A stretch of 64,000 bases of DNA from Roseibium sp. TrichSKD4. Lineage in GTDB: Bacteria > Pseudomonadota > Alphaproteobacteria > Rhizobiales > Stappiaceae. Location: the NCBI RefSeq assembly GCF_000148725.1, contig NZ_GL476320.1:555319-619318 (forward strand), given 5' to 3'. Under the pieces are notes generated by a model, which was not told the DNA's origin, ran no database searches, and worked only from the letters and a program-made list of their open reading frames with translations. The number at the start of each line of letters is the position of its first letter. The stretch's first letter is position 1. The translations under genes and the position numbers were made by a program. Shown piece by piece: positions 51,584-63,974 of this stretch.

Positions 51584-52495
51584 TTAGAAGACTGGGTCGG
51601 CTTCTGGAAGGCCAAGTTGGCGGCGGGCTGCTGTGACCGTGTTGGCCATCAACATGGCAATGGTCATCGGACCAACGCCGCCGGGAACAGGCGTGATGGC
51701 GCCTGCGTGTTCGGCTGCCTCTTCATATGCAACATCGCCGACGAGCCGCGTTTTGCCTTCGCCTTTTTCAGGCGCTGGAACACGGTTGATTCCAACGTCA
51801 ATGACAGTCGCTCCTGGTTTGATCCAATCGCCTTTGACCATTTCTGGGCGGCCAACCGCAGCAACCACAATATCGGCTGCACGAACCACTTCGGACAAAT
51901 CCTTGGTGCGGCTATGGGCGATTGTGATCGTGCAGCTTTCCTGCAGAAGCAAGCTGGCCATAGGCTTGCCGACAATGTTGGACCGGCCAACGATGACGGC
52001 TGTTTTTCCAGATAGGTTTTTGCCGAGCGCGCGCTTGATCAGAACAAGGCTTCCGGCTGGCGTGCACGGCACAAGAGCAGATGATTGCTCTCCAGCGGTC
52101 AGCAGGCCGACATTGATCGGATGAAAGCCGTCGACGTCCTTCTCCGGTTTGATGAGGTTCAGAACCTTGCTCTCATCAATATGGCCGGGCAGGGGAAGCT
52201 GCACGAGAATGCCGTGGATTGCTGCATCGTCATTCAGCTTTTGCACCATCGCCAGAAGATCGTCCTCGGATGTGTCTTCCGGCATGTCGTGTTTGACGGA
52301 ATGAAAGCCGCAGGCTTCAGCGGTTTTCTGCTTGTTGCGGACATACACCTGGCTGGCCGGGTCATGGCCGACGATGACAACTGCAAGTCCCGGACGGGTC
52401 CCGTGATTTTCCAGAAGGTCCTGTGATCGACGGGTAATTTCTTCGCGAACGGATTCTGCGACTGCTTTTCCGTCAATGACTTGTGCTGCTGCCAT
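51584..52495 (-). CDS. folD: Methylenetetrahydrofolate dehydrogenase/cyclohydrolase
   Basis: FolD turns 5,10-methylene-THF into 10-formyl-THF with NADP. The catalytic Lys lies in [14 protein letters not shown] and the nucleotide site is [17 protein letters not shown]; the 303-residue length is normal. The start at 52495 (MAAAQVIDG) has AGGGA upstream, and the longer frame to 52606 is non-coding-like. It lies next to a locus that feeds methyl and methylene units to folate (55-64 kb), so it could process that flux, though folD is also a housekeeping gene. Confidence 0.95.
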
Positions 52496-52627
52496 GATCC
52501 CTGCCTGCTTTCGGGTTTGGGTGGAGGAGGTGGTGCCGCTGTCTATAGAACTGCGTGCGAGGCAGGGAAAGACTGTAAGCGTCTTTTCCTTGCCCGGTTT
52601 CGTCATCTGCTTGTTTTTGACACGATT

Positions 52628-55011: not shown

Positions 55012-56553
55012 TCAAACGTTGCTGTCTGGGAAGGAGGCTTTGCGTTCTTCCATGAAGGCAACAAGTGCCTCATCAATGCCGGGGTCGAGTTCAGGGCCGG
55101 TATAGGCGGCCAGTTGCTCTTTCCAGATCTTGTTGGCCCGTTTGGCGGCGTCCAGCTCGCCATCAGCCAGCCATTGCTCATAGGAGTTGTTGTCAGCCAC
55201 AGTTGAGCGGTAGAAGGCGCTTTCAAAGTTGCGCTGGGTGTGGGCTGCGCCGAGGAAGTGACCGCCCGGTCCGACTTCTTCCAATGCATCCATGGCTATG
55301 GCTTCGTCTGAAAGGTCGATGCCCTTTGCCAGAACATGCATCATGCCTAGTTGATCGGCGTCCATGACGAATTTTTCGTAGGACGAGCAAAGGCCGCCTT
55401 CCAGCCATCCGGCCGCATGCAGACAGAAATTGACGCCGCCTTGAACCGTTGCCGTAATGGTTTGCGCTGATTCCTGCGCAGACTGCGCGTCCGGCAATTT
55501 GGATGCCGTGAAAGAGCCGCCAGAGCGGAAGGGCAGGCCGAGGCGACGGGCGAGTTTTGCTGCGCCGTTCAAAAGCAGAGAGCCTTCCGGGCTGCCGAAG
55601 GTCGGCGCGCCAGATTGCATGGAAATGGAGCTCACGAATGCCCCAAAGACAACCGGTGCGCCCGGACGGATCAGCTGGGTGAGGGCGCAGCCTGCCATGG
55701 CCTCTGCGAGCACCTGTGCCAGCGTGCCGGCGACCGTGACCGGGCTCATGGCACCTGCCAGAATGAAAGGCGAGACAATACAAGCCTGATTGTTTTTGGC
55801 ATAAACCTGCAGCGCGCCGAGCATGGTTGCATCAAACACCAGCGGTGAGTTGGCGTTGATAAGCTGGATCATCACGCAGTTCTGGTCGACAAATTCCTCG
55901 CCAAAGACAATCTGCGCCATTTTGACGGAATCTTCCGCCCGTTCCGGCGCGGTGACAGATCCCATGAAGGGTTTGTCGGAATATTTGATATGGGAATAGA
56001 CCATATCAAAGTGGCGCTTGTTGACCGGCAGATCCACCGGCTCACAAACCGTGCCGCCAGAGTGGTGCAGCCACGGAGACATGTAGGCCAGCTTCACGAA
56101 ATTGCGGAAATCATCAATCGTGCCATAGCGACGACCGTTGTCGAGATCGGTCACAAAGGGAGGGCCATAAACCGGGGCGAGCACAAGGTTTTTGCCGCCG
56201 ATTTCGACGTTCCTAGCCGGATTGCGCGCATGCTGAGTAAATTGGGCAGGGGCTGTTTTCAGGATTTCCCGCAGCATGCCTTTTGGAAAGCGAACCCGCT
56301 CGCCATCAACTTCTGCGCCAGCTTGTTTCCAGATTTCCAGAACTTCTGGCGCTTCACGGAATTCCAGACCGATTTCTGCCAGAATGCGGTCGGCATAGGC
56401 TTCGATCTTTTCCGCACCTTCATCGCTGAGCACTTCAAAATTCGGAATGTTCCGATTGATGTAAGGCGCGCCGACAACGCCGCCTCCCGTCTTGCGACGT
56501 TCCCGGCGAGCAGATCGTCCGCGGCGGCCCGCAGAAACAGCAGCGTCAGTCAT
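55012..56553 (-). CDS. MttB-family corrinoid methyltransferase, non-pyrrolysine type
   Basis: A 513-residue member of the trimethylamine methyltransferase (COG5598) superfamily, moving a methyl group from a quaternary or tertiary amine to a corrinoid protein. The frame has no in-frame amber codon, so no pyrrolysine is used; such members include the glycine-betaine methyltransferase MtgB. Family features are the N-terminal NRNIPNFEVLSDEGAEKIEAYA, DVNAPGPPFVTDLDNG-like sequence near residue 120 and barrel segments to residue ~480. Residues 1-25 are an Arg/Gly-rich tail (AGRRGRSARRERR), like those on three other proteins of this locus. AGGGG precedes the ATG. Divergent from the FAD/GcvT gene. 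Substrate is inferred, most likely glycine betaine or a similar N-methyl compound. Confidence 0.9.
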   Translation of the reverse strand: MTDAAVSAGRRGRSARRERRKTGGGVVGAPYINRNIPNFEVLSDEGAEKIEAYADRILAEIGLEFREAPEVLEIWKQAGAEVDGERVRFPKGMLREILKTAPAQFTQHARNPARNVEIGGKNLVLAPVYGPPFVTDLDNGRRYGTIDDFRNFVKLAYMSPWLHHSGGTVCEPVDLPVNKRHFDMVYSHIKYSDKPFMGSVTAPERAEDSVKMAQIVFGEEFVDQNCVMIQLINANSPLVFDATMLGALQVYAKNNQACIVSPFILAGAMSPVTVAGTLAQVLAEAMAGCALTQLIRPGAPVVFGAFVSSISMQSGAPTFGSPEGSLLLNGAAKLARRLGLPFRSGGSFTASKLPDAQSAQESAQTITATVQGGVNFCLHAAGWLEGGLCSSYEKFVMDADQLGMMHVLAKGIDLSDEAIAMDALEEVGPGGHFLGAAHTQRNFESAFYRSTVADNNSYEQWLADGELDAAKRANKIWKEQLAAYTGPELDPGIDEALVAFMEERKASFPDSNV

Positions 56554-56970
56554 GGGGGACCCCTAATTTAGAGAATTGCCAGTGTTGCATGAAGTCTTAG
56601 GCAAGTTTGGATTTTGCCTCTGCCCAGATCCGTCTCAACTTGCTCTAATTACGGCATGATAGCGTTTCGGTGCGAAAGAAATGCCGCCGTAATTTCCTTG
56701 CGCATATGCTTTTCTTTTTTCGGGTGAACAGGTCCGATTTATGGCTGTTCAGCTTGTGAATTCGCTTGCCCGTGTCGTGGCGCTTATGCTGCCGTGACGC
56801 AATTAGGCTATCTGGCTTGCTTGAGCGCCGCGATACTGCCGTTTGAAAGATCAAATCCGTAAGACACTCCTCACCAGTCGGGCGAGGAGATGCACGCTTT
56901 GATATGCGGATGACAAAGGCAATTGGACCCTGAGAGAAAATCGGGGCGGTCGGTTGAAGAGGAAGAAAAG
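56554..56970. other. Divergent control region of the C1 locus
   Basis: 417 bases between the mttB-family gene and the FAD/GcvT gene, the place where both promoters and any co-regulation must sit. I see the inverted repeat CTCCTC / GAGGAG (56864-56869 and 56883-56888) and near its end AAAGGCAATTGGACC, reminiscent of the 3' half of a glycine riboswitch but without the full fold. GAGGAAG at 56959-56965 is the ribosome site of the FAD gene. No gene found. Confidence 0.5.
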
Positions 56971-59532
56971 ATGTCAGCGTTTCCTGACAAGGCACAGGTT
57001 GTCATCGTCGGTCTGGGAGGCATCGTGGGGGCATCTATTGCCCATCACCTGATCGAACGCGGATGGACTGATATTGTCGGCATCGACAAATCCGGCATAC
57101 CGACCGATATCGGCTCGACGGCCCATGCGTCCGACTTCTGCTACACCACCAGTCATGATTACCTATCGACATGGACGTCGCTCTATTCTGTCGAATTCTT
57201 TGACAAGATGGGCAATTACGAGCGTGTGGGCGGGTTTGAAGTTGCGCGCACTGGCGATGATAACTGGATGGAAGAAATCAAGCGCAAGGTTACTTCCGGC
57301 AAAGCTTTTGGCACCAATGTGCGTCTCGTGACACCTGCCGAAATCAAGGAACAATTTCCCTTGATCGAAGAGGACCAGGTGCAAGGCGGGATGTTTGATC
57401 CCGATGCCGGTCTGGTTGTTCCGCGTTCGCAGACGGTTGCTGGAAAGCTGGTGGAAGAGGGCGAAAAGACCGGCAAGCTGAAATCCTTCGCCAACACGCC
57501 GGCCCAGTCCCTGATCGTTGAAAATGGCCGTATCACCGGTGTCAAAACGCATCGCGGCACCATCATGGCAGATCATGTGGTGGTGTGTGCGGGTCTGTGG
57601 GGGCGTCTGATCGCCAATATGGTGGGCGAAGATCTGCCAGTGATGCCAGTTGACCACCCGCTGACTTTCTTCGGCCCTTACACCGAGTTTGAAGGCACCG
57701 GAAAGGACATTGGTTATCCCTTAATGCGCGATCAGGGCAACTCGGCCTATATGCGTGATACGGGCGACCCCAAAACAGCAGAAGGCGGCCAGATCGAGTG
57801 GGGGTATTACGAGACGGACAACCCGCGCATGTGCCACCCGCGCGACCTGCAGGAAAAGGAAGAGGCGCGACTTTCACCCTCCCAGCGCGACCTGGAAATG
57901 GAACAGGTAATCGAGCCGCTGGAGCGGGCCATGGAGCTGACGCCGATCCTCGGCGAGATCGGCTACAACGAGCACTGGTCTTTCAATGGTCTTCTGCAGG
58001 TGTCTGCTGCTGGCGGTCCATCCTGTGGTGAAAGTCAGAAAGTGCGCGGTCTTTGGTACTGCGTTGCGATCTGGGTGAAGGACGCGCCGGGTTATGGCAA
58101 GCTGATCGCCGACTGGATGACGGATGGGCGGACAGAAATCGACCACGCACCGATTGATTATTCTCGCTTTTATCCGCACCAGCTGACGGAGGAGTATATC
58201 GAAGGGCGCTGCTACGAAGCGGCCCAGAAAATCTACTTCCCGGCGATCCACCCGCGTGAGCCTTATGCCAATGCACGAAATGTGAAGCGCTCCCCGTTCT
58301 ATGAGCGTGAAGTTGAACTTGGCGGCTATTTCATGGAGCTTGGCGGCTGGGAGCGGGCGCATGGCTATGCGGCCAACGAACACCTTCTGGAAAAATACGG
58401 CGACCAGGTGCCGGTTCGCGAGAATGAGTGGGACAATCGCCACTTCTGGCGCGTCTCCAATGCCGAACAACTGGCGCTCAGTGAAGACTGCGGCATCATC
58501 AACCTGTCCCACTTCTACATGTTCGATGTGGAAGGCCCGGATCATGTTGCCCTGATGGAATGGCTCTGCGCAGCCAAGATCGGCGGCGACAACAACATCG
58601 GCAAAGGCATCTACACCCACTTCCTGGATGATGAAGGCAATGTACGGGCAGACCTGACCGTCTTCCGCATGGAAGACCGCTGCCGCATTGTTGACGGAGC
58701 GGATGCCGGCCCGCGTGATTATCACTACGTCAAACGCGTGGCAGAGGACAAAGGCTTTGACGTCACCGTGACTGACGTCAACGAGCAGTACACCACCATT
58801 GGCATCTGGGGCCCGAACGCCCGCGAGAACCTGAAAAAGGTGGTGAGCGAGCTGTCAGACCTTGATCTGGAAAACTTCCGGTTTGCAGGTCTTCGCCAGA
58901 TTGAGATTGCGGGCAAGCCTGTTTCCGCCCTGCGCCTTTCCTATGTCGGGGAGCAAGGCTGGGAACTGCACATGAAGTATGAGGACGGTCTGGCTGTCTG
59001 GGACGCCTTGCGCGATCTCGGCATCATGGCCGTTGGCGTTGAAACCTACGCAAACTCCCGCCGATTGGAAAAGTCCCTGCGTTTGCAGAACGCGGACCTT
59101 CTGACCCAGTACAATCTTTATGAGGCTGATCTTGCCCGTCCAAAGGTCAAGGAAGCGGATTTCCGAGGCAAAGCCAAGCATCTGGAATACCGCGCACGCG
59201 ACAAGCAACCGGCAATGCTCTGCACGCTGGTGATGACCGAGCACACAGATTCAAAGGGTGTGAAGCGATACCCGGTTGGTACCATGCCGGTTCAAGACCC
59301 GGACACAGGCAAGACGCTTGTCGATGAGCTGGGCCGGATTTCCTACACGACCTCAGTTGCCTACGGCCCGACGATTGGCAAGAACATCGTCCTTGCCTAT
59401 CTGCCGCAGGAGTACGCGCAGGTCGGCCGCAAGCTGCAGGTGGAGTATTTCTCCGAGAGCTATCCGGTTGAAGTGGCTGGTGTCGGCTACGCCCCGCTCT
59501 ACGACCCGGAAAACCTCAAGCCACGGAGTTAG
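56971..59532 (+). CDS. FAD-dependent oxidoreductase fused to GcvT-type aminomethyltransferase (dimethylglycine/sarcosine dehydrogenase-like)
   Basis: An 853-residue protein that, by family, oxidatively removes an N-methyl group and hands the C1 unit to tetrahydrofolate as methylene-THF. Order of domains: FAD-binding DAO fold (residues ~9-370, dinucleotide motif VVIVGLGGIVGASIA), FAO-M linker (~375-435), GCV_T folate domain (~440-720, with YVGEQGWELHMKYED) and GCV_T C-terminal domain. His52 in GSTAHASDF matches the His that covalently carries FAD in dimethylglycine and sarcosine dehydrogenases, although the usual Trp before it is Ala. Start 56971 follows GAGGAAG; an in-frame ATG-less extension to 56923 is less likely. 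Unlike its neighbours it has no Arg/Gly tail. Confidence 0.92.
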   Translation: MSAFPDKAQVVIVGLGGIVGASIAHHLIERGWTDIVGIDKSGIPTDIGSTAHASDFCYTTSHDYLSTWTSLYSVEFFDKMGNYERVGGFEVARTGDDNWMEEIKRKVTSGKAFGTNVRLVTPAEIKEQFPLIEEDQVQGGMFDPDAGLVVPRSQTVAGKLVEEGEKTGKLKSFANTPAQSLIVENGRITGVKTHRGTIMADHVVVCAGLWGRLIANMVGEDLPVMPVDHPLTFFGPYTEFEGTGKDIGYPLMRDQGNSAYMRDTGDPKTAEGGQIEWGYYETDNPRMCHPRDLQEKEEARLSPSQRDLEMEQVIEPLERAMELTPILGEIGYNEHWSFNGLLQVSAAGGPSCGESQKVRGLWYCVAIWVKDAPGYGKLIADWMTDGRTEIDHAPIDYSRFYPHQLTEEYIEGRCYEAAQKIYFPAIHPREPYANARNVKRSPFYEREVELGGYFMELGGWERAHGYAANEHLLEKYGDQVPVRENEWDNRHFWRVSNAEQLALSEDCGIINLSHFYMFDVEGPDHVALMEWLCAAKIGGDNNIGKGIYTHFLDDEGNVRADLTVFRMEDRCRIVDGADAGPRDYHYVKRVAEDKGFDVTVTDVNEQYTTIGIWGPNARENLKKVVSELSDLDLENFRFAGLRQIEIAGKPVSALRLSYVGEQGWELHMKYEDGLAVWDALRDLGIMAVGVETYANSRRLEKSLRLQNADLLTQYNLYEADLARPKVKEADFRGKAKHLEYRARDKQPAMLCTLVMTEHTDSKGVKRYPVGTMPVQDPDTGKTLVDELGRISYTTSVAYGPTIGKNIVLAYLPQEYAQVGRKLQVEYFSESYPVEVAGVGYAPLYDPENLKPRS

Positions 59533-59549
59533 GCAAGGGATCGAATGGC

Positions 59550-59610
59550 GCCCCGGACACCGATCCGGGGCCTTTGAGACCGTGAGATGGCCCCGGTTCA
59601 AGACCGGGGC
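59550..59610. repeat. Two tandem GCCCCGG hairpins
   Basis: GCCCCGGA-CACCGA-TCCGGGGC (59550-59571) and GCCCCGGT-TCAAG-ACCGGGGC (59590-59610) are perfect 8-bp stems nearly identical to each other. They follow the FAD/GcvT stop at 59532 and look like members of a dispersed intergenic repeat rather than one terminator, as neither is followed by a T-run. Confidence 0.7.
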
Positions 59611-59629
59611 GGCGACTACAATATACCAA

Positions 59630-59655
59630 AACCCGCGTAGACATCTGCGCGGGTT
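59630..59655 (+). terminator. Hairpin before the homocysteine methyltransferase gene
   Basis: AACCCGCG pairs perfectly with CGCGGGTT over a 10-base loop and is followed by CTGCTATTT. A weak T-run makes this a possible terminator of the FAD/GcvT transcript. Confidence 0.55.
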
Positions 59656-59715
59656 CTGCTATTTCGCATATACAAAGTTATCGCAGCGAAAGCTGCTTTG
59701 GTGGGCAAGAAAATC

Positions 59716-60741
59716 ATGTCGAAATTTGAAGATCTTCTGGCGAATAAAGGTGCGCTATTGGCAGACGGGGCCACGGGCACGACCCTGTTTGATATGGGGC
59801 TCACTTCGGGTGATGCGCCAGAGCTTTGGAACGTGGATGAGCCTGAGAAAATCAAGGAACTGCACCGCGGCTTTGCCGAGGCTGGTTCGGATATCATTCT
59901 CACAAACACGTTCGGGGCCAATCGGCACCGGTTGAAGCTTCACAATGCAGAAGGACGCGTGAAAGAGCTGAATGCAGCTGGTGTTCGTCTGGCCCGGGAA
60001 GTTGGTGAAGCGTTAGGCCGCGATGTACTGGTGGCCGGATCGATCGGTCCAACAGGAGAGCTGTTCCAACCTCTCGGCGCACTGAGCTTTGAAGAGGCAG
60101 TTGAGGCATTTGTAGAGCAAATCGACGGGTTGATTGAAGGCGGCACTGATATTCTTTGGGTTGAGACCATGTCTGCCCCTGAAGAAATGAAGGCTGCAGC
60201 AGAAGCGGCCAAGGGCAAGGGCGTGCCGCTGGTGATCACGGCCAGTTTCGACACCGCTGGCAAGACCATGATGGGCCTGTCTCCAAAAGGTATGGCGCAG
60301 CTCAAGTCAGAGTTTTCCTGCGAGCCGGTGGCGATTGGGTCAAACTGCGGTGTTGGCGCGTCCGATCTTCTTGCTGCCATTTCCGAGATCACGGAAGCAG
60401 ACCCTTCCGCCATCGTCGTTGCCAAGGCAAACTGCGGCATTCCGGAAGTTCGCGGCGACGAAGTCGTTTACACCGGCACGCCGGAGCTGATGGGCAAATA
60501 CACCCATATGGCGCTCGACGCGGGGGCACGGATTATCGGCGGGTGCTGCGGCACGTCGGCAGGTCATCTCGCCGCTATGCGTTCAGCGATGGACACACAC
60601 ACCAAAGGCGAGCGCCCCACACTGGAGGCAATCCTTTCGGAAATCGGTCCGCTCGTCTCACCTCCCAATCTGGAAGCCGATGCAGCCCGGGAAAGCGATG
60701 GCGGCGGGTCTGGACGCAGGCGAGGACGACGGCGCGGGTAG
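59716..60741 (+). CDS. Homocysteine S-methyltransferase family protein (BHMT-like)
   Basis: A zinc-dependent methyltransferase giving homocysteine a methyl group to make methionine, like betaine-homocysteine methyltransferase. Zinc ligands are Cys211 in GSNCGVG and Cys277/Cys278 in GGCCGTS; the N-terminal DGATGTTLFDMG is typical. With start 59716 (MSKFEDLL) it has 341 residues. Residues 329-341 form an Arg/Gly tail (GGGSGRRRGRRRG). It reads the same way as the FAD/GcvT gene and faces the RamA-like gene. From memory, Sinorhizobium meliloti has a BHMT-type bmt gene for glycine betaine use; whether this protein uses betaine, dimethylglycine or methyl-corrinoid is not known. Confidence 0.9.
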   Translation: MSKFEDLLANKGALLADGATGTTLFDMGLTSGDAPELWNVDEPEKIKELHRGFAEAGSDIILTNTFGANRHRLKLHNAEGRVKELNAAGVRLAREVGEALGRDVLVAGSIGPTGELFQPLGALSFEEAVEAFVEQIDGLIEGGTDILWVETMSAPEEMKAAAEAAKGKGVPLVITASFDTAGKTMMGLSPKGMAQLKSEFSCEPVAIGSNCGVGASDLLAAISEITEADPSAIVVAKANCGIPEVRGDEVVYTGTPELMGKYTHMALDAGARIIGGCCGTSAGHLAAMRSAMDTHTKGERPTLEAILSEIGPLVSPPNLEADAARESDGGGSGRRRGRRRG

Positions 60742-60769
60742 TTTCCAAATATGCATATTGGACGCTGTC

Positions 60770-60811
60770 ATTCCAGACAAGCTGAACCAGAGTGAAGCGC
60801 AGATCTGGAAT
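60770..60811. repeat. Intergenic hairpin repeat, copy 1
   Basis: ATTCCAGA (60770-60777) pairs with TCTGGAAT (60804-60811) in the form of the ATTCC...GGAAT dispersed intergenic element of related genomes. Followed ~70 bases later by a second copy. Confidence 0.6.
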
Positions 60812-60882
60812 CCAGACATAAGTCAGGCTTCGCGTGGCTTGAGCGTTTTTGGAATTCGCTTAGGCTCATGCTGCAACGCTGG

Positions 60883-60923
60883 ATTCCGGATCATCGTGCA
60901 GCTTTGCTGCACTCGTTCGGAAT
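60883..60923. repeat. Intergenic hairpin repeat, copy 2
   Basis: ATTCCGGA pairs with TTCGGAAT, and inside it GTGCAG pairs with CTGCAC around CTTTG: a two-level hairpin in the gap between the converging homocysteine methyltransferase and RamA-like genes. Could also stop transcription from both sides. Confidence 0.65.
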
Positions 60924-60966
60924 GACTGAAGTAGATGCGCCAACAAGTTGAACACGATAGCGGTGG

Positions 60967-63000
60967 CTACCCCCGCCGACGCCTTCTGCGTCTACCGCCG
61001 TCATCGCTGCCGGCCGTTTCAAGTTCCTTACGCGCTGGCAGCTCGACGGCTGCGCGGAGCTTCGGGAAGGGGTCCACCTTGTTGGGCAGGGCCATGGCAT
61101 TGACGAAGTGATTCTGGAACTTGGGTTCCAGCGCGGTTTCGATTTTCTCAATGTCTCGAACGGTTTGCTCGATCTCGCGGCGATATCCCATGTTGAGAAG
61201 GGCCATGCGCGCGCCTGTGCCAGCTGCGTTGCCAACTCCTGACACATGATCCACCGAGCAATCCGGGATAAGCCCCAAAACCATGGCATAGGTCGGATCA
61301 ATGTAGCTGCCAAAGGCACCAGCGAGTTTGATGCGGTCAATCTTGTCTGTGCCGAGCTTGTCCTGCAGCAGTTTCACACCGGCATAAAGGGCTCCCTTGG
61401 CCAGCTGAATGGCACGGATATCCGTCTGCAGGATTTTGATTTCAACGTCCCGGTCGGCGATCTTGTACGAAAAGGTGCGGCCTGAGGCCTCAACGCGGTC
61501 TGTCCGCTCGGCCATGGAACCATCGATGATGCCATCTTCGGTGATGAGGCCTGAAAGATACATTTCAGCGACGGCTTCAATAATGCCGGAGCCGCAGATG
61601 CCGGTGACGCCGACCTGATCGATCTTTTCCTCAAAACCGTCTTCATCTGACCATTCATCAACGCCGATGACCTTGTAGCGCGGCTCCAGCGTGTTGCGAT
61701 CTATGCGCAGGCGCTCAATGGCTCCGGGAGCGGCGCGTTGGCCGGAGGAGATTTCAGCCCCCTCAAAGGCTGGTCCGGTTGGAGAACTGGCCGCCAGAAG
61801 GCGGGCCTTGCCGCCCAGAACGATCTCGGCATTGGTGCCAACGTCGACCAAAAGCGTAATTTCTTCAGACGAATAGGGGCTTTCCGCCAGTGTAGCTGCT
61901 GCTGCGTCCGCCCCCACATGACCAGCAATGCACGGCAGCATGTAGACATGCGCACCAGGGTTCAGCTCCAGATCAAGATCACGGGCTTTCAGCTGCAAGG
62001 CATCAGAAACAGCAAGCGCAAACGGCGCACCGCCCAACTCTACCGGGTCAATGCCAAGGAAGAGGTGGTGCATCACCGGGTTGCCGACAAAGACGGCATC
62101 CAGAACATCGGATCGCTCTGCGCCAACATCTGCCACCAGCTTGCCGATCAGCGCGTTGATGGCATCGCGCACAGCCTTGGTGAGATCCGGCAGCTTGGCG
62201 GGGTTCATCTGCACATAAGACACCCGCGACATGAGGTCTTCGCCAAAACGGATTTGCGGGTTGGACGTGCCCTGCGAGGTCACTGTGCGGCCATTTTGCA
62301 GGTTGCAAAGGTGGGCTGCGATCGTTGTTGAGCCAATGTCGACGGCAAGGCCATAAACGCCGCGTTTTTCGCCCGGCCAGAGAGCCGAAATCGAAGCAGC
62401 GTGATCGCCATCTTCATGAAGCGCTGCGGTGACTGTCCATTTGCCTTGACGCAGGATGGTCTGGATACGCGGCAAAAGGGCCGGATCAATTGTCAAGTTG
62501 GCCACACCGCAAGCCGTGGCGACAGCTTCGCGCAGGCGGTCAGCATCCCCGCGCGGTGTTTCCATGTCCGGTTCTTCCAAAGTGACTGTGACCAGCCGGA
62601 TCGGCGAATCTGCCTTTATGGCCTTGGCTTCGGCGCGCTTGCGCACAACTTGCCGGTTGGTCTGGGCATCGGTTGGAACATCAACAACCAGGTCGCCCAG
62701 AATTTTTGCCTGACAGGAAAGGCGACGGTCAGCGGGTAGGCTGCGCTTTTCCGCGTAGCGGTTTTCTGCGTCGGTTGCTGGCGCAAGGTGGCTTGCGTCA
62801 CTGACGACATTTTCCTTGGCAAAGGAACCTTCGGAAACGGAAATCTGGCAGCGGCCGCAAATACCGCGACCACCACAAACAGATTCAACATAAACACCGA
62901 GAGAGCGTGCAGCATCCAAAAGAGGTGTGCCAACGGGGAAGGTACCCCGTCTTCCACTTGGCTGGAAAACGACCTTTGCCAGTTCCTTGCCGTTGCTCAT
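60967..63000 (-). CDS. RamA-like corrinoid activation protein (2Fe-2S ferredoxin + ASKHA domain)
   Basis: A 677-residue protein that, by family, uses ATP to reduce the inactive Co(II) form of a corrinoid protein back to Co(I). The N-terminal ferredoxin carries Cys42, Cys48, Cys51 and Cys96 (in VCGGRGICGRC and RRLSCQAKI), the plant-type 2Fe-2S pattern. The ASKHA part contains YGLAVDIGSTTIAAHL and LLVDVGTNAEIVLGG. Residues ~665-677 are a Gly/Arg tail (DDGGRRRRRRG). GGGAG precedes the start. It lies 23 bases after the methyl-THF methyltransferase gene, same transcript, and serves the MttB-family methyltransferase whose cofactor goes inactive. Confidence 0.93.
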   Translation of the reverse strand: MSNGKELAKVVFQPSGRRGTFPVGTPLLDAARSLGVYVESVCGGRGICGRCQISVSEGSFAKENVVSDASHLAPATDAENRYAEKRSLPADRRLSCQAKILGDLVVDVPTDAQTNRQVVRKRAEAKAIKADSPIRLVTVTLEEPDMETPRGDADRLREAVATACGVANLTIDPALLPRIQTILRQGKWTVTAALHEDGDHAASISALWPGEKRGVYGLAVDIGSTTIAAHLCNLQNGRTVTSQGTSNPQIRFGEDLMSRVSYVQMNPAKLPDLTKAVRDAINALIGKLVADVGAERSDVLDAVFVGNPVMHHLFLGIDPVELGGAPFALAVSDALQLKARDLDLELNPGAHVYMLPCIAGHVGADAAAATLAESPYSSEEITLLVDVGTNAEIVLGGKARLLAASSPTGPAFEGAEISSGQRAAPGAIERLRIDRNTLEPRYKVIGVDEWSDEDGFEEKIDQVGVTGICGSGIIEAVAEMYLSGLITEDGIIDGSMAERTDRVEASGRTFSYKIADRDVEIKILQTDIRAIQLAKGALYAGVKLLQDKLGTDKIDRIKLAGAFGSYIDPTYAMVLGLIPDCSVDHVSGVGNAAGTGARMALLNMGYRREIEQTVRDIEKIETALEPKFQNHFVNAMALPNKVDPFPKLRAAVELPARKELETAGSDDGGRRRRRRRG

Positions 63001-63023
63001 TGCCGCTCCCGGTATTGTTTTTA

Positions 63024-63974
63024 TCAGGCCGTCCGACGTGCCGCGCGCCCGCCGCGGCGGCGACCGCCCGCGCTTGGCGCTTCAGTTGGAGCAGCTGATG
63101 CCCCGGCTGCTGCCGGTTGGTGATCACGATAGGTCATGATCCATTCCTGACAGTTCGGGTCAGTGCCATTGAGCACGTTCGCTGCACGAACAGCTTCCAT
63201 TTCCTGCGGACGGCACGGGTTCATGATGGCGGAGGTCATGCCTGTGGCAATAACCATCGGAATGAATGCCCCGTTGATGCCGTGACGATGCGGCAGGCCG
63301 AAGGAGATGTTGGACAGGCCACAGGTGGTGTTGACTTTCAATTCGTCGCGGAGGCGGCGAAGCAGTTGGAACACCTGCTGACCAGAAGTGCCAACAGCGC
63401 CAATGGGCATGACCAGCGGGTCTACCACAATGTCGTGTGCCGGGATGCCGTAGTCGGCAGCGCGTTCGACGATTTTCTTGGCAACGGCAAAGCGAACGTC
63501 CGGATCTTCGGAAATGCCGCTTTCATCGTTGGAAATCGCAACAACCGGCACATCATATTTTTTCACCAGCGGGAGAATCGCTTCCAGCTTTTCTTCTTCA
63601 CCGGTGACAGAGTTGACCAGGGGGCGGCCCTTAGCGACCCGGAGCCCTGCCTCGATTGCGGCGGTAACTGAGGAATCGATGGAGAGCGGAACGTCGACAA
63701 GTTCCTGAACGATCTCAAGCGTCTTGACCATGAGTGGCGGCTCGGTCTCGTTCGGGTTGACCGCCGTCACACCAGCATTGACGTCCAAAACTGTTGCGCC
63801 TGCTGCGACCTGTGCCAGAGCGTCGGCTTTTACGGTTTCGAAGTTGCCTTCGTTCATTTCCGCTGCAAGCTTTTTGCGGCCGGTCGGATTGATGCGCTCG
63901 CCGATAACGCAGAACGGCTGATCAAAGCCGATGATGACTTCCCTGGTCGCCGAAGCCACAATTGTGCGTGTCAT
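63024..63974 (-). CDS. Methyltetrahydrofolate:corrinoid methyltransferase
   Basis: A 316-residue pterin-binding-fold enzyme that moves a methyl group between a corrinoid protein and tetrahydrofolate, of the MtvA/AcsE type. Signs are FCVIGERINPTGRKKL, VLDVNAGV, PLSIDSS, DPLVMPIGA and LSNISFGLPHR. The last 17 residues are an Arg/Gly tail (SAGGRRRGGRAARRTA) after an Ala/Pro linker. GAGGGA lies before the start at 63974. The gene is first visible of its transcript; the corrinoid protein (MtbC type) it needs is likely just beyond the window edge, to the right. Confidence 0.92.
   Translation of the reverse strand: MTRTIVASATREVIIGFDQPFCVIGERINPTGRKKLAAEMNEGNFETVKADALAQVAAGATVLDVNAGVTAVNPNETEPPLMVKTLEIVQELVDVPLSIDSSVTAAIEAGLRVAKGRPLVNSVTGEEEKLEAILPLVKKYDVPVVAISNDESGISEDPDVRFAVAKKIVERAADYGIPAHDIVVDPLVMPIGAVGTSGQQVFQLLRRLRDELKVNTTCGLSNISFGLPHRHGINGAFIPMVIATGMTSAIMNPCRPQEMEAVRAANVLNGTDPNCQEWIMTYRDHQPAAAGASAAPTEAPSAGGRRRGGRAARRTA

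What the first reader, a model, noticed from the sequence alone, without database searches (positions are those of the whole stretch)
55012..63974. Four proteins of the corrinoid C1 locus carry matching Arg/Gly-rich tails
Direct reading: the MttB-family methyltransferase starts with a tail (AGRRGRSARRERR, residues ~8-20); the homocysteine methyltransferase ends in SGRRRGRRRG; the RamA-like protein ends in GGRRRRRRG; the methyl-THF methyltransferase ends in GGRRRGGRAARRTA. These four proteins have unrelated folds, so shared ancestry does not explain the tails, and the FAD/GcvT protein of the same locus lacks one. Each tail hangs off a disordered Gly/Ala linker. A common docking, complex-building or RNA/membrane-binding signal for enzymes passing a labile methyl group is the simplest reading. 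I know of no description of this as a shared assembly tag.
Basis: partly seen in the sequence, partly recalled or inferred. Interest (0 to 1): 0.78.

Follow-up and report, generated by a model that had tools for sequence, protein, structure and literature searches.

The report
Arginine tails on B12 methyl-transfer enzymes
Four different enzymes that work with one small vitamin-B12 carrier protein each carry a floppy, arginine-rich tail that related bacteria keep faithfully, possibly as a shared tag that brings them to that carrier.

Summary
The tails are real and not chance. The locus is the known MtgBCDE split methionine synthase / glycine-betaine demethylase with its RamA-like activase. MtgB has an N-terminal tail; MtgD, MtgE and RamA have C-terminal ones. 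Over 85 sources, a C-terminal cluster of at least 4 R in 12 occurs in 85/85 RamA, 80/80 MtgD and 14/15 MtgE (the miss looks like a fused MetH), against 0 or 1 member in each of six neighbour families. MtgB has its N-terminal tail in 52/52. In 701 genes of a related genome 2 reach 6 R in 12. Tails persist where the genes are dispersed, and 21 same-family paralogues of MtgE lack them. Basic residues in the tails are almost all Arg (1422 R, 22 K), so Arg itself is selected. The tailed proteins are the methyl donors, acceptors and reactivase expected to contact the corrinoid protein MtgC, which has an acidic N-terminal extension. Best reading: client tags that dock enzymes on MtgC. Pathway specificity is shown; the docking partner is inferred. 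Corrections: three of the four are TIM barrels, and MtgC lies beyond the window edge. I saw no description of the tails in the papers searched.

The parts
55012..56553 (-). MtgB-type MttB-family methyltransferase (methylated-amine donor side)
   Evidence: PF06253 E 4.9e-239; the match begins at residue 10, i.e. inside the tail
56494..56532 (-). N-terminal Arg tail of MtgB, residues 8-20 AGRRGRSARRERR
   Evidence: direct reading; 52 of 52 orthologues have at least 5 R in a 20-residue stretch ahead of the core
56971..59532 (+). FAD/GcvT protein (dimethylglycine/sarcosine dehydrogenase type by domain content), no tail: internal negative control
   Evidence: DAO, FAO_M, GCV_T, GCV_T_C; 0 of 29 homologues have a C-terminal Arg cluster
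59716..60741 (+). MtgE, homocysteine methyltransferase module of the split methionine synthase
   Evidence: PF02574; NF005718 484 bits against cut-off 338
60709..60738 (+). C-terminal Arg tail of MtgE, SGRRRGRRRG
   Evidence: direct reading; 14 of 15 homologues in loci, the miss a 1263-aa protein that looks like fused MetH
60967..63000 (-). RamA-like corrinoid reductive activase (2Fe-2S ferredoxin + RACo/ASKHA domains)
   Evidence: PF14574, PF17651, PF17650, PF00111
60970..60999 (-). C-terminal Arg tail of RamA, GGRRRRRRRG
   Evidence: direct reading; 85 of 85; solved RACo 3zyy has 9 residues beyond the aligned core, against 36 here
63024..63974 (-). MtgD, methyltetrahydrofolate:corrinoid methyltransferase
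   Evidence: PF00809; NF005719 405 bits against cut-off 259
63027..63068 (-). C-terminal Arg tail of MtgD, GGRRRGGRAARRTA
   Evidence: direct reading; 80 of 80 with at least 4 R in 12; residues 288-316 predicted with pLDDT below 50

Best explanation
This is the split B12-dependent methyl-transfer system MtgBCDE plus RamA. One small corrinoid protein, MtgC (just beyond the window edge, judging by relatives), shuttles the methyl group: MtgB loads it from a methylated amine, MtgD exchanges it with tetrahydrofolate, MtgE passes it to homocysteine, and RamA re-reduces oxidised cobalamin. In fused methionine synthase such modules are held together by linkers. Here each client instead has a disordered, guanidinium-rich tail that acts as a short tether, raising its encounter rate with MtgC. 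The most likely landing site is the acidic N-terminal extension of MtgC (consensus MxDDEIxLxxLSDDEL) and the acidic cap helix after it. SHOWN: the tails, their restriction among the locus's families, their conservation across dispersed genes, Arg-not-Lys selection, predicted disorder of the MtgD tail, and the acidic extension on MtgC. TAKEN FROM PAPERS: the MtgBCDE reactions and mutant phenotypes. INFERRED: that tails bind MtgC, that the acidic extension is the site, and that this speeds methyl transfer or reactivation.
For: In 85 sources: C-tail (at least 4 R in 12) in RamA 85/85, MtgD 80/80, MtgE 14/15; in neighbours MtgC 0/71, DUF1638 1/74, PF13769 protein 1/76, MTHFR-C 0/56, MTHFR 1/57, FAD/GcvT 0/29. 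MtgB N-tail 52/52. In a class sample of 142 genomes: RamA orthologues 23/26 with at least 5 R by the last-30 rule, two of the three misses having an Arg cluster followed by extra residues; MtgD 25/27, the misses being one fragment and one 40%-identity non-orthologue; MtgE 22/24 with at least 4 R. At 20 of 29 MtgC loci of a phylum sample: MtgE 17/17, RamA 6/6, MtgD 7/7, MtgB 6/6. MttB paralogues keep the tag down to 26% core identity (49/50). Tails hold 1422 R against 22 K while bodies have R:K 1.0-1.8, and all six Arg codons are used. Same-family paralogues of MtgE 0/21. RamA-like proteins of other corrinoid systems lack tails (0 of 5). Solved RACo and MeTr end within 9 residues of the aligned core. 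MtgC: acidic N-terminus in 27/27 and 20/20 copies, ahead of the Pfam cap domain that starts at residue 18. Mutants show that MtgC and MtgD serve both pathways (PMC12478193).
Against: No binding data. DUF1638 is also predicted to take part in cobalamin reactivation (PMC12478193) and has no tail, so the match between tails and MtgC partners may not be perfect. Other corrinoid proteins also have acidic N-termini (8 of them, net -2 to -12 in 40 residues), so acidity alone is not specific. Two MttB-family proteins next to a different corrinoid protein (L288, L304) still show Arg-rich N-termini, and one MtgD-like protein of a non-MtgC system (L291) ends in WRTKQRETKRAAR, which passes the 4-R rule. 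No trend links MtgC acidity to tail strength: G070 and G100 have weak MtgC charge (-9) but tails on MtgE and RamA. MtgD tails are weaker in many loci: 48 of 80 reach 5 R in 12. Tails also contain acidic residues (406 D/E over the four sets). The near absence of Lys is stricter than plain electrostatics needs.
Confidence: 0.47

Rival explanations
1. The Arg tails and the acidic MtgC extension make a complex coacervate: a methyl-transfer condensate rather than one-to-one docking, with oligomeric clients giving multivalency.
For: Strong preference for Arg over Lys; arginine-rich chains phase-separate more readily than lysine-rich ones (PMC9705477, abstract and passages); Gly/Ala linkers; M. barkeri MttB is a homohexamer (PMC9842639, passages).
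Against: Each tail has only about 4-8 Arg and the window tails lack repeated RGG units and aromatic residues; no imaging evidence.
Confidence: 0.15
2. The tails bind RNA or ribosomes, or anionic membrane, and co-localise the enzymes by a common third surface.
For: Of the 12 sampled G001 genes with at least 5 R at the C-terminus, 3 lie in one stretch that looks like a ribosomal-protein operon (L149; naming recalled).
Against: Lys is almost absent, unusual for general polyanion or lipid binding (recalled); the absence of tails from the other C1 enzymes of the locus is unexplained.
Confidence: 0.13
3. The tails bind another conserved protein of the cluster (DUF1638 or the PF13769 protein) that acts as the scaffold.
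For: Both are conserved beside MtgC (DUF1638 74 and PF13769-type 76 hits in 85 sources); DUF1638 mutants of P. inhibens are rescued by methionine (PMC5764234, passages).
Against: In 13 of 20 MtgC loci of the phylum sample no PF13769 protein was found within the 20 kb taken, while tails persist (the rest of those genomes was not searched for it); mean net charge of the PF13769 protein is only -3.5.
Confidence: 0.14
4. Low-complexity drift: GC-rich CGN codon runs at protein ends with no function.
For: Tails are low-complexity and end proteins; linkers vary freely.
Against: All six Arg codons including AGA/AGG are used and neighbouring species encode the same tail with different codons; background is 2 of 701; same-family paralogues lack tails (0 of 21).
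Confidence: 0.03

Closest known systems
MtgBCDE of Ruegeria pomeroyi and the split methionine synthase of Phaeobacter inhibens (PMC12478193, PMC5764234)
   Same: Same protein families and roles; MtgB, MtgD, MtgE, RamA homologues here; MtgC present in relatives
   Different: The main text of PMC12478193 has 0 hits for the words arginine or tail; of PMC5764234 only term-matched passages were seen. In those two species the genes are dispersed, here clustered
MttB-MttC complex of Methanosarcina barkeri (7xcl, 7xcn) and MtgB of Desulfitobacterium hafniense (2qne, 9yce)
   Same: Homologous methyltransferase and corrinoid protein
   Different: The Arg tail finds no counterpart in the alignments (9yce has 2 residues before the aligned core; the unaligned first 16 of 2qne and 33 of 7xcl were not printed); MttC and 1y80 have 4 residues before the part aligned to MtgC residues 15 and 19. 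MttB contacts MttC by cap domain and dimerisation loop (PMC9842639, passages). Organism of 2qne recalled and from PMC9842639
MtaC N-terminal domain
   Same: An extra N-terminal segment on a corrinoid protein that appears to stabilise the complex with its methyltransferase (PMC9842639, passage)
   Different: It is a domain fitting a groove between MtaB subunits, not a short acidic extension meeting Arg tails
MetH, fused methionine synthase
   Same: Same modules
   Different: Modules are covalently joined; the fused example in L057 has no Arg tail

Membership tests
MtgBCDE split corrinoid methyltransferase / methionine synthase | MTTB, pterin-binding, homocysteine-methyltransferase and RamA-like proteins encoded separately | tested here: met
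MtgBCDE split corrinoid methyltransferase / methionine synthase | stand-alone corrinoid protein MtgC encoded with them | tested here: inconclusive
   not in the window, which ends beside MtgD; found about 1.3-3 kb upstream of MtgD in close relatives L005-L012
MtgBCDE split corrinoid methyltransferase / methionine synthase | activity: glycine-betaine demethylation and methionine synthesis | not testable with these tools
   known from mutants of R. pomeroyi
RG/RGG low-complexity motif | Arg strongly preferred over Lys, with Gly | tested here: met
   R:K about 10 to 139 in tails
RG/RGG low-complexity motif | several RGG or RG repeats | tested here: not met
   window tails are R-runs or a single RRRGGR unit (by reading)
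Tat twin-arginine signal peptide | RR motif followed by a hydrophobic stretch at the N-terminus | tested here: not met
   MtgB tail is followed by KTGGGVVGAPY and the core; the other three tails are C-terminal (by reading)

The most novel reading that the evidence does not exclude
A guanidinium-specific client code: enzymes of separate families that must visit one diffusible B12 protein have each gained an Arg-rich disordered tail that partners an acidic extension on that hub, replacing the covalent linkers of fused methionine synthase and assembling a dynamic methyl-transfer metabolon or condensate in aerobic proteobacteria.
Probability: 0.3. Interest if true: 0.82.

Novelty: new variant of a known kind. 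Interest (0 to 1): 0.64.

Why it matters
If right, it explains how a methionine synthase can be split into freely diffusing parts and share one corrinoid carrier between catabolism and biosynthesis: a simple charge code recruits clients to the hub. It would give a sequence marker for MtgC-dependent MttB paralogues (many of unknown substrate in marine and soil bacteria), a portable tether for engineering corrinoid methyl transfer, and an easily tested case of pathway-wide convergent evolution of a disordered tag.

Tried and rejected
Chance and composition: rejected by background counts and codon use. An earlier background from longest-ORF calling (58 of 1019 with at least 5 R) was inflated by antisense ORFs and replaced by a codon-scored gene call. 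Other genes of the loci themselves: 20 of 935 with at least 5 R, 7 with at least 6.

Operon tag: rejected, since MttB paralogues on other contigs carry it and genomes with scattered genes keep tails.

Counting rules matter for the N-terminus. By 12-residue windows in the first 40 residues only 11 of 52 MtgB reach 5 R, because the Arg are spread over about 20 residues; by 20-residue windows ahead of the core 52 of 52 do, but so do 49 of 56 MTHFR-C and 33 of 57 MTHFR. Those stretches run into the folded domain: with a low-complexity condition they fall to 1 and 0 while MtgB stays at 51 of 52.

MtgC acidity as a unique mark: weakened, other corrinoid N-termini are also acidic. Co-variation of tail loss with MtgC charge: one suggestive genome (G098: RamA and MtgE tails gone, MtgC charge the weakest at -8) but no trend.

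Fold search was not used. Prediction of complexes was not available. Literature: listings seen were 20 of 39, 5 of 5 (21), 15 of 207 (60), 10 of 33 (70), 8 of 8 (71), 12 of 14 (87) and 8 of 373 (95); none of the listed titles or abstract starts describes these tails. Full texts were seen only in part: PMC12478193 outline, section 4 part 1 of 2, sections 7 and 9, and term finds; PMC9842639, PMC5764234 and PMC9705477 passages only.
Full report
WHAT WAS CHECKED. Families: MTTB (PF06253), homocysteine methyltransferase (PF02574; NF005718 above its cut-off), RACo/RamA-type activase (PF14574, PF17651, PF17650, Fer2) and pterin-binding methyl-THF methyltransferase (PF00809; NF005719 above its cut-off), with an FAD/GcvT protein between them. 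The Pfam MTTB profile itself begins inside the tail (protein residues 10-509 match profile 2-500). This is the MtgBCDE system described in Ruegeria pomeroyi (PMC12478193: outline, sections 4 part 1, 7 and 9; [quoted passage not shown] No whole genome is held for the window; the best RamA matches are Roseibium, Stappia, Labrenzia and Pannonibacter contigs (74-84% identity).

IS IT MORE THAN CHANCE. I called genes by codon score in 800 kb of a related genome (G001, 40 stretches): 701 genes; at least 6 R in 12 within the last 30 residues in 2, at least 5 in 12, at least 4 in 41. In the window (40 genes called) at least 6 R occurs in 3, which are MtgE, RamA and MtgD (the caller trimmed the MtgB start). 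An N-terminal low-complexity tail like MtgB's occurs in 2 of 352.

CONSERVATION. One scan of genome contigs with a RamA alignment gave 80 loci, the best 80 of 585; with four plasmid loci and the window that makes 85 sources. C-terminal cluster of at least 4 R in 12: RamA 85/85, MtgD 80/80, MtgE 14/15; at least 5 R: 85, 48, 14; at least 6 R: 82, 38, 8. Neighbours at 4 R: MtgC 0/71, DUF1638 1/74, PF13769 protein 1/76, MTHFR-C domain 0/56, MTHFR 1/57, FAD/GcvT 0/29. The MtgE miss is a 1263-residue protein, 31% identical over the MtgE part, that looks like fused MetH. MtgB: 52/52 have at least 5 R in a 20-residue stretch before the core, 51/52 of low complexity. The linkers vary in sequence and length while the Arg cluster stays (output cut in the RamA part). 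Azoarcus, a betaproteobacterium, has the tails on MtgD and RamA.

PATHWAY, NOT OPERON. In 14 genomes the MTTB family has 52 places; I examined 50, and 49 carry the N-terminal tag, even at 26% core identity; the exception, L127, matches the profile only from position 45. In a class sample of 142 genomes I could examine 24 MtgE-like, 28 RamA-like and 27 MtgD-like frames, each from 30 loci. MtgE: 22/24 with at least 4 R (21 with 5); the misses are in G098 and G075. RamA: 23 of 26 orthologues with at least 5 R; of the misses, L206 (GGGGRRRGLRRRG then an extension) and L221 (an inner cluster, NTRRKSNRRGTGR) still have Arg clusters, L219 (G098) has none. MtgD: 25/27; the misses are a fragment and a 40%-identity non-orthologue. 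Forty-two further MTTB frames, out of at least 124 places, gave 38 with the tag; the misses are L283 and L300 (4 R each), L289 (3) and L287 (0), and for L288 the measured stretch is not anchored at the core. At 20 of the 29 MtgC loci of a 299-genome phylum sample: MtgE 17/17, RamA 6/6, MtgD 7/7 (one with only 4 R), MtgB 6/6, within the 20 kb taken. In several genomes the tailed genes lie far apart or on different contigs, e.g. G036 and G110.

NEGATIVE CONTROLS. Twenty-one single-domain homocysteine-methyltransferase-family paralogues, several from genomes that also hold a tailed MtgE, have no tail (0/21). Two genomes with a different corrinoid system (G095, G139) have tail-less RamA-like proteins (3 and 2 R); of their MtgD-like proteins L290 has no tail, but L291 ends WRTKQRETKRAAR, an R/K end that passes the 4-R rule. 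RamA homologues of Halomicrococcus, Acetoanaerobium and Vescimonas and the stand-alone MtgD homologue of Acetoanaerobium lack tails. Among solved structures, RACo (3zyy) and MeTr (2e7f) end 9 and 3 residues after the aligned core. For D. hafniense MtgB (2qne, 9yce) and M. barkeri MttB (7xcl) the alignments begin at or after the core; the first residues of 2qne and 7xcl were not printed. 4yyc, which agrees with the S. meliloti protein of L001 in the stretches that I could compare, aligns through the tag. One MTTB protein beside its own, different corrinoid protein has no tag (L287), in a genome whose other MTTB proteins do; but L288 and L304, in the same situation, have Arg-rich N-termini. That weakens a strict rule.

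CHEMISTRY. Tails hold 1422 Arg and 22 Lys over the four families (and 406 Asp/Glu), whereas the bodies have R:K of 1.0 to 1.8; all six Arg codons occur, and neighbouring species encode the RamA tail with different codons. This excludes simple codon-repeat slippage and indicates selection for Arg itself. The MtgD model is confident over the barrel (overall mean pLDDT 82.8) and below 50 over residues 288-316, the tail.

THE HUB. In the closest relatives MtgC lies about 1.3-3 kb upstream of MtgD, which here would be beyond the window edge. Every canonical MtgC examined with its N-terminus has an acidic start: mean net charge -12.9 in 40 residues over 71 copies (one of them a fragment), -8 to -16 in 27 copies, -12 to -17 in 20 copies. 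The first 17 residues precede the Pfam cap domain, are present in an alignment of 33 copies, and are not matched in solved relatives (1y80 aligns from residue 19, MttC from 15). The model (mean pLDDT 75.8) leaves residues 1-13 mostly unstructured before the first cap helix. Other corrinoid proteins can be nearly as acidic (eight, net -2 to -12), so this is suggestive only.

INTERPRETATION. The four tailed proteins should contact MtgC: methyl donor side, folate side, homocysteine side and reactivase. Of the untailed neighbours, DUF1638 is also predicted to help reactivation (PMC12478193), so the match is good but perhaps not exact; the others have no contact with MtgC that I know of. The economical reading is a shared client tag for the hub, doing by charge what linkers do in MetH. 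I give 0.47 to docking on MtgC, 0.15 to a condensate, 0.14 to another scaffold protein, 0.13 to RNA or membrane. The pathway-wide tag itself I regard as established at the sequence level (about 0.95).

NOVELTY. The enzymes and pathway are known. The tails are not mentioned in the main text of PMC12478193 by the words arginine or tail, and the listings seen (partly capped) show no paper on them; supplements and most subscription papers were not available.

Noticed in passing
L001 14601-14939; also L017 9485-9772, L018, L019, L022, L033, L039, L043: A small protein (about 80-116 aa) encoded between MtgD and RamA in Rhizobiaceae ends in a basic R/K tail (e.g. KPYGKRVRSNARRLSRRKP); the L001 copy has no Pfam family above cut-off. 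Unlike the four tails it contains Lys.
   Followed up: partly
L004 11722-14004: In Terrarubrum flagellatum a protein annotated 'virulence factor' and RamA form one 760-aa frame that keeps an Arg tail, hinting that the PF13769 protein works with RamA.
   Followed up: no
L287 4324-6557 (G093): An MTTB-family protein without Arg tag next to its own corrinoid protein (40% identical to MtgC), in a genome with tagged MTTB paralogues.
   Followed up: partly
G098 (L187, L219, L307): A small genome whose RamA and MtgE lack the tail and whose MtgC N-terminal charge is the weakest of the class sample; MtgD keeps its tail.
   Followed up: no
window 51584-52606 (-): A frame that reads like FolD (methylene-THF dehydrogenase/cyclohydrolase; recalled, not run through a library) lies near the locus, fitting oxidation of the methyl groups.
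   Followed up: no
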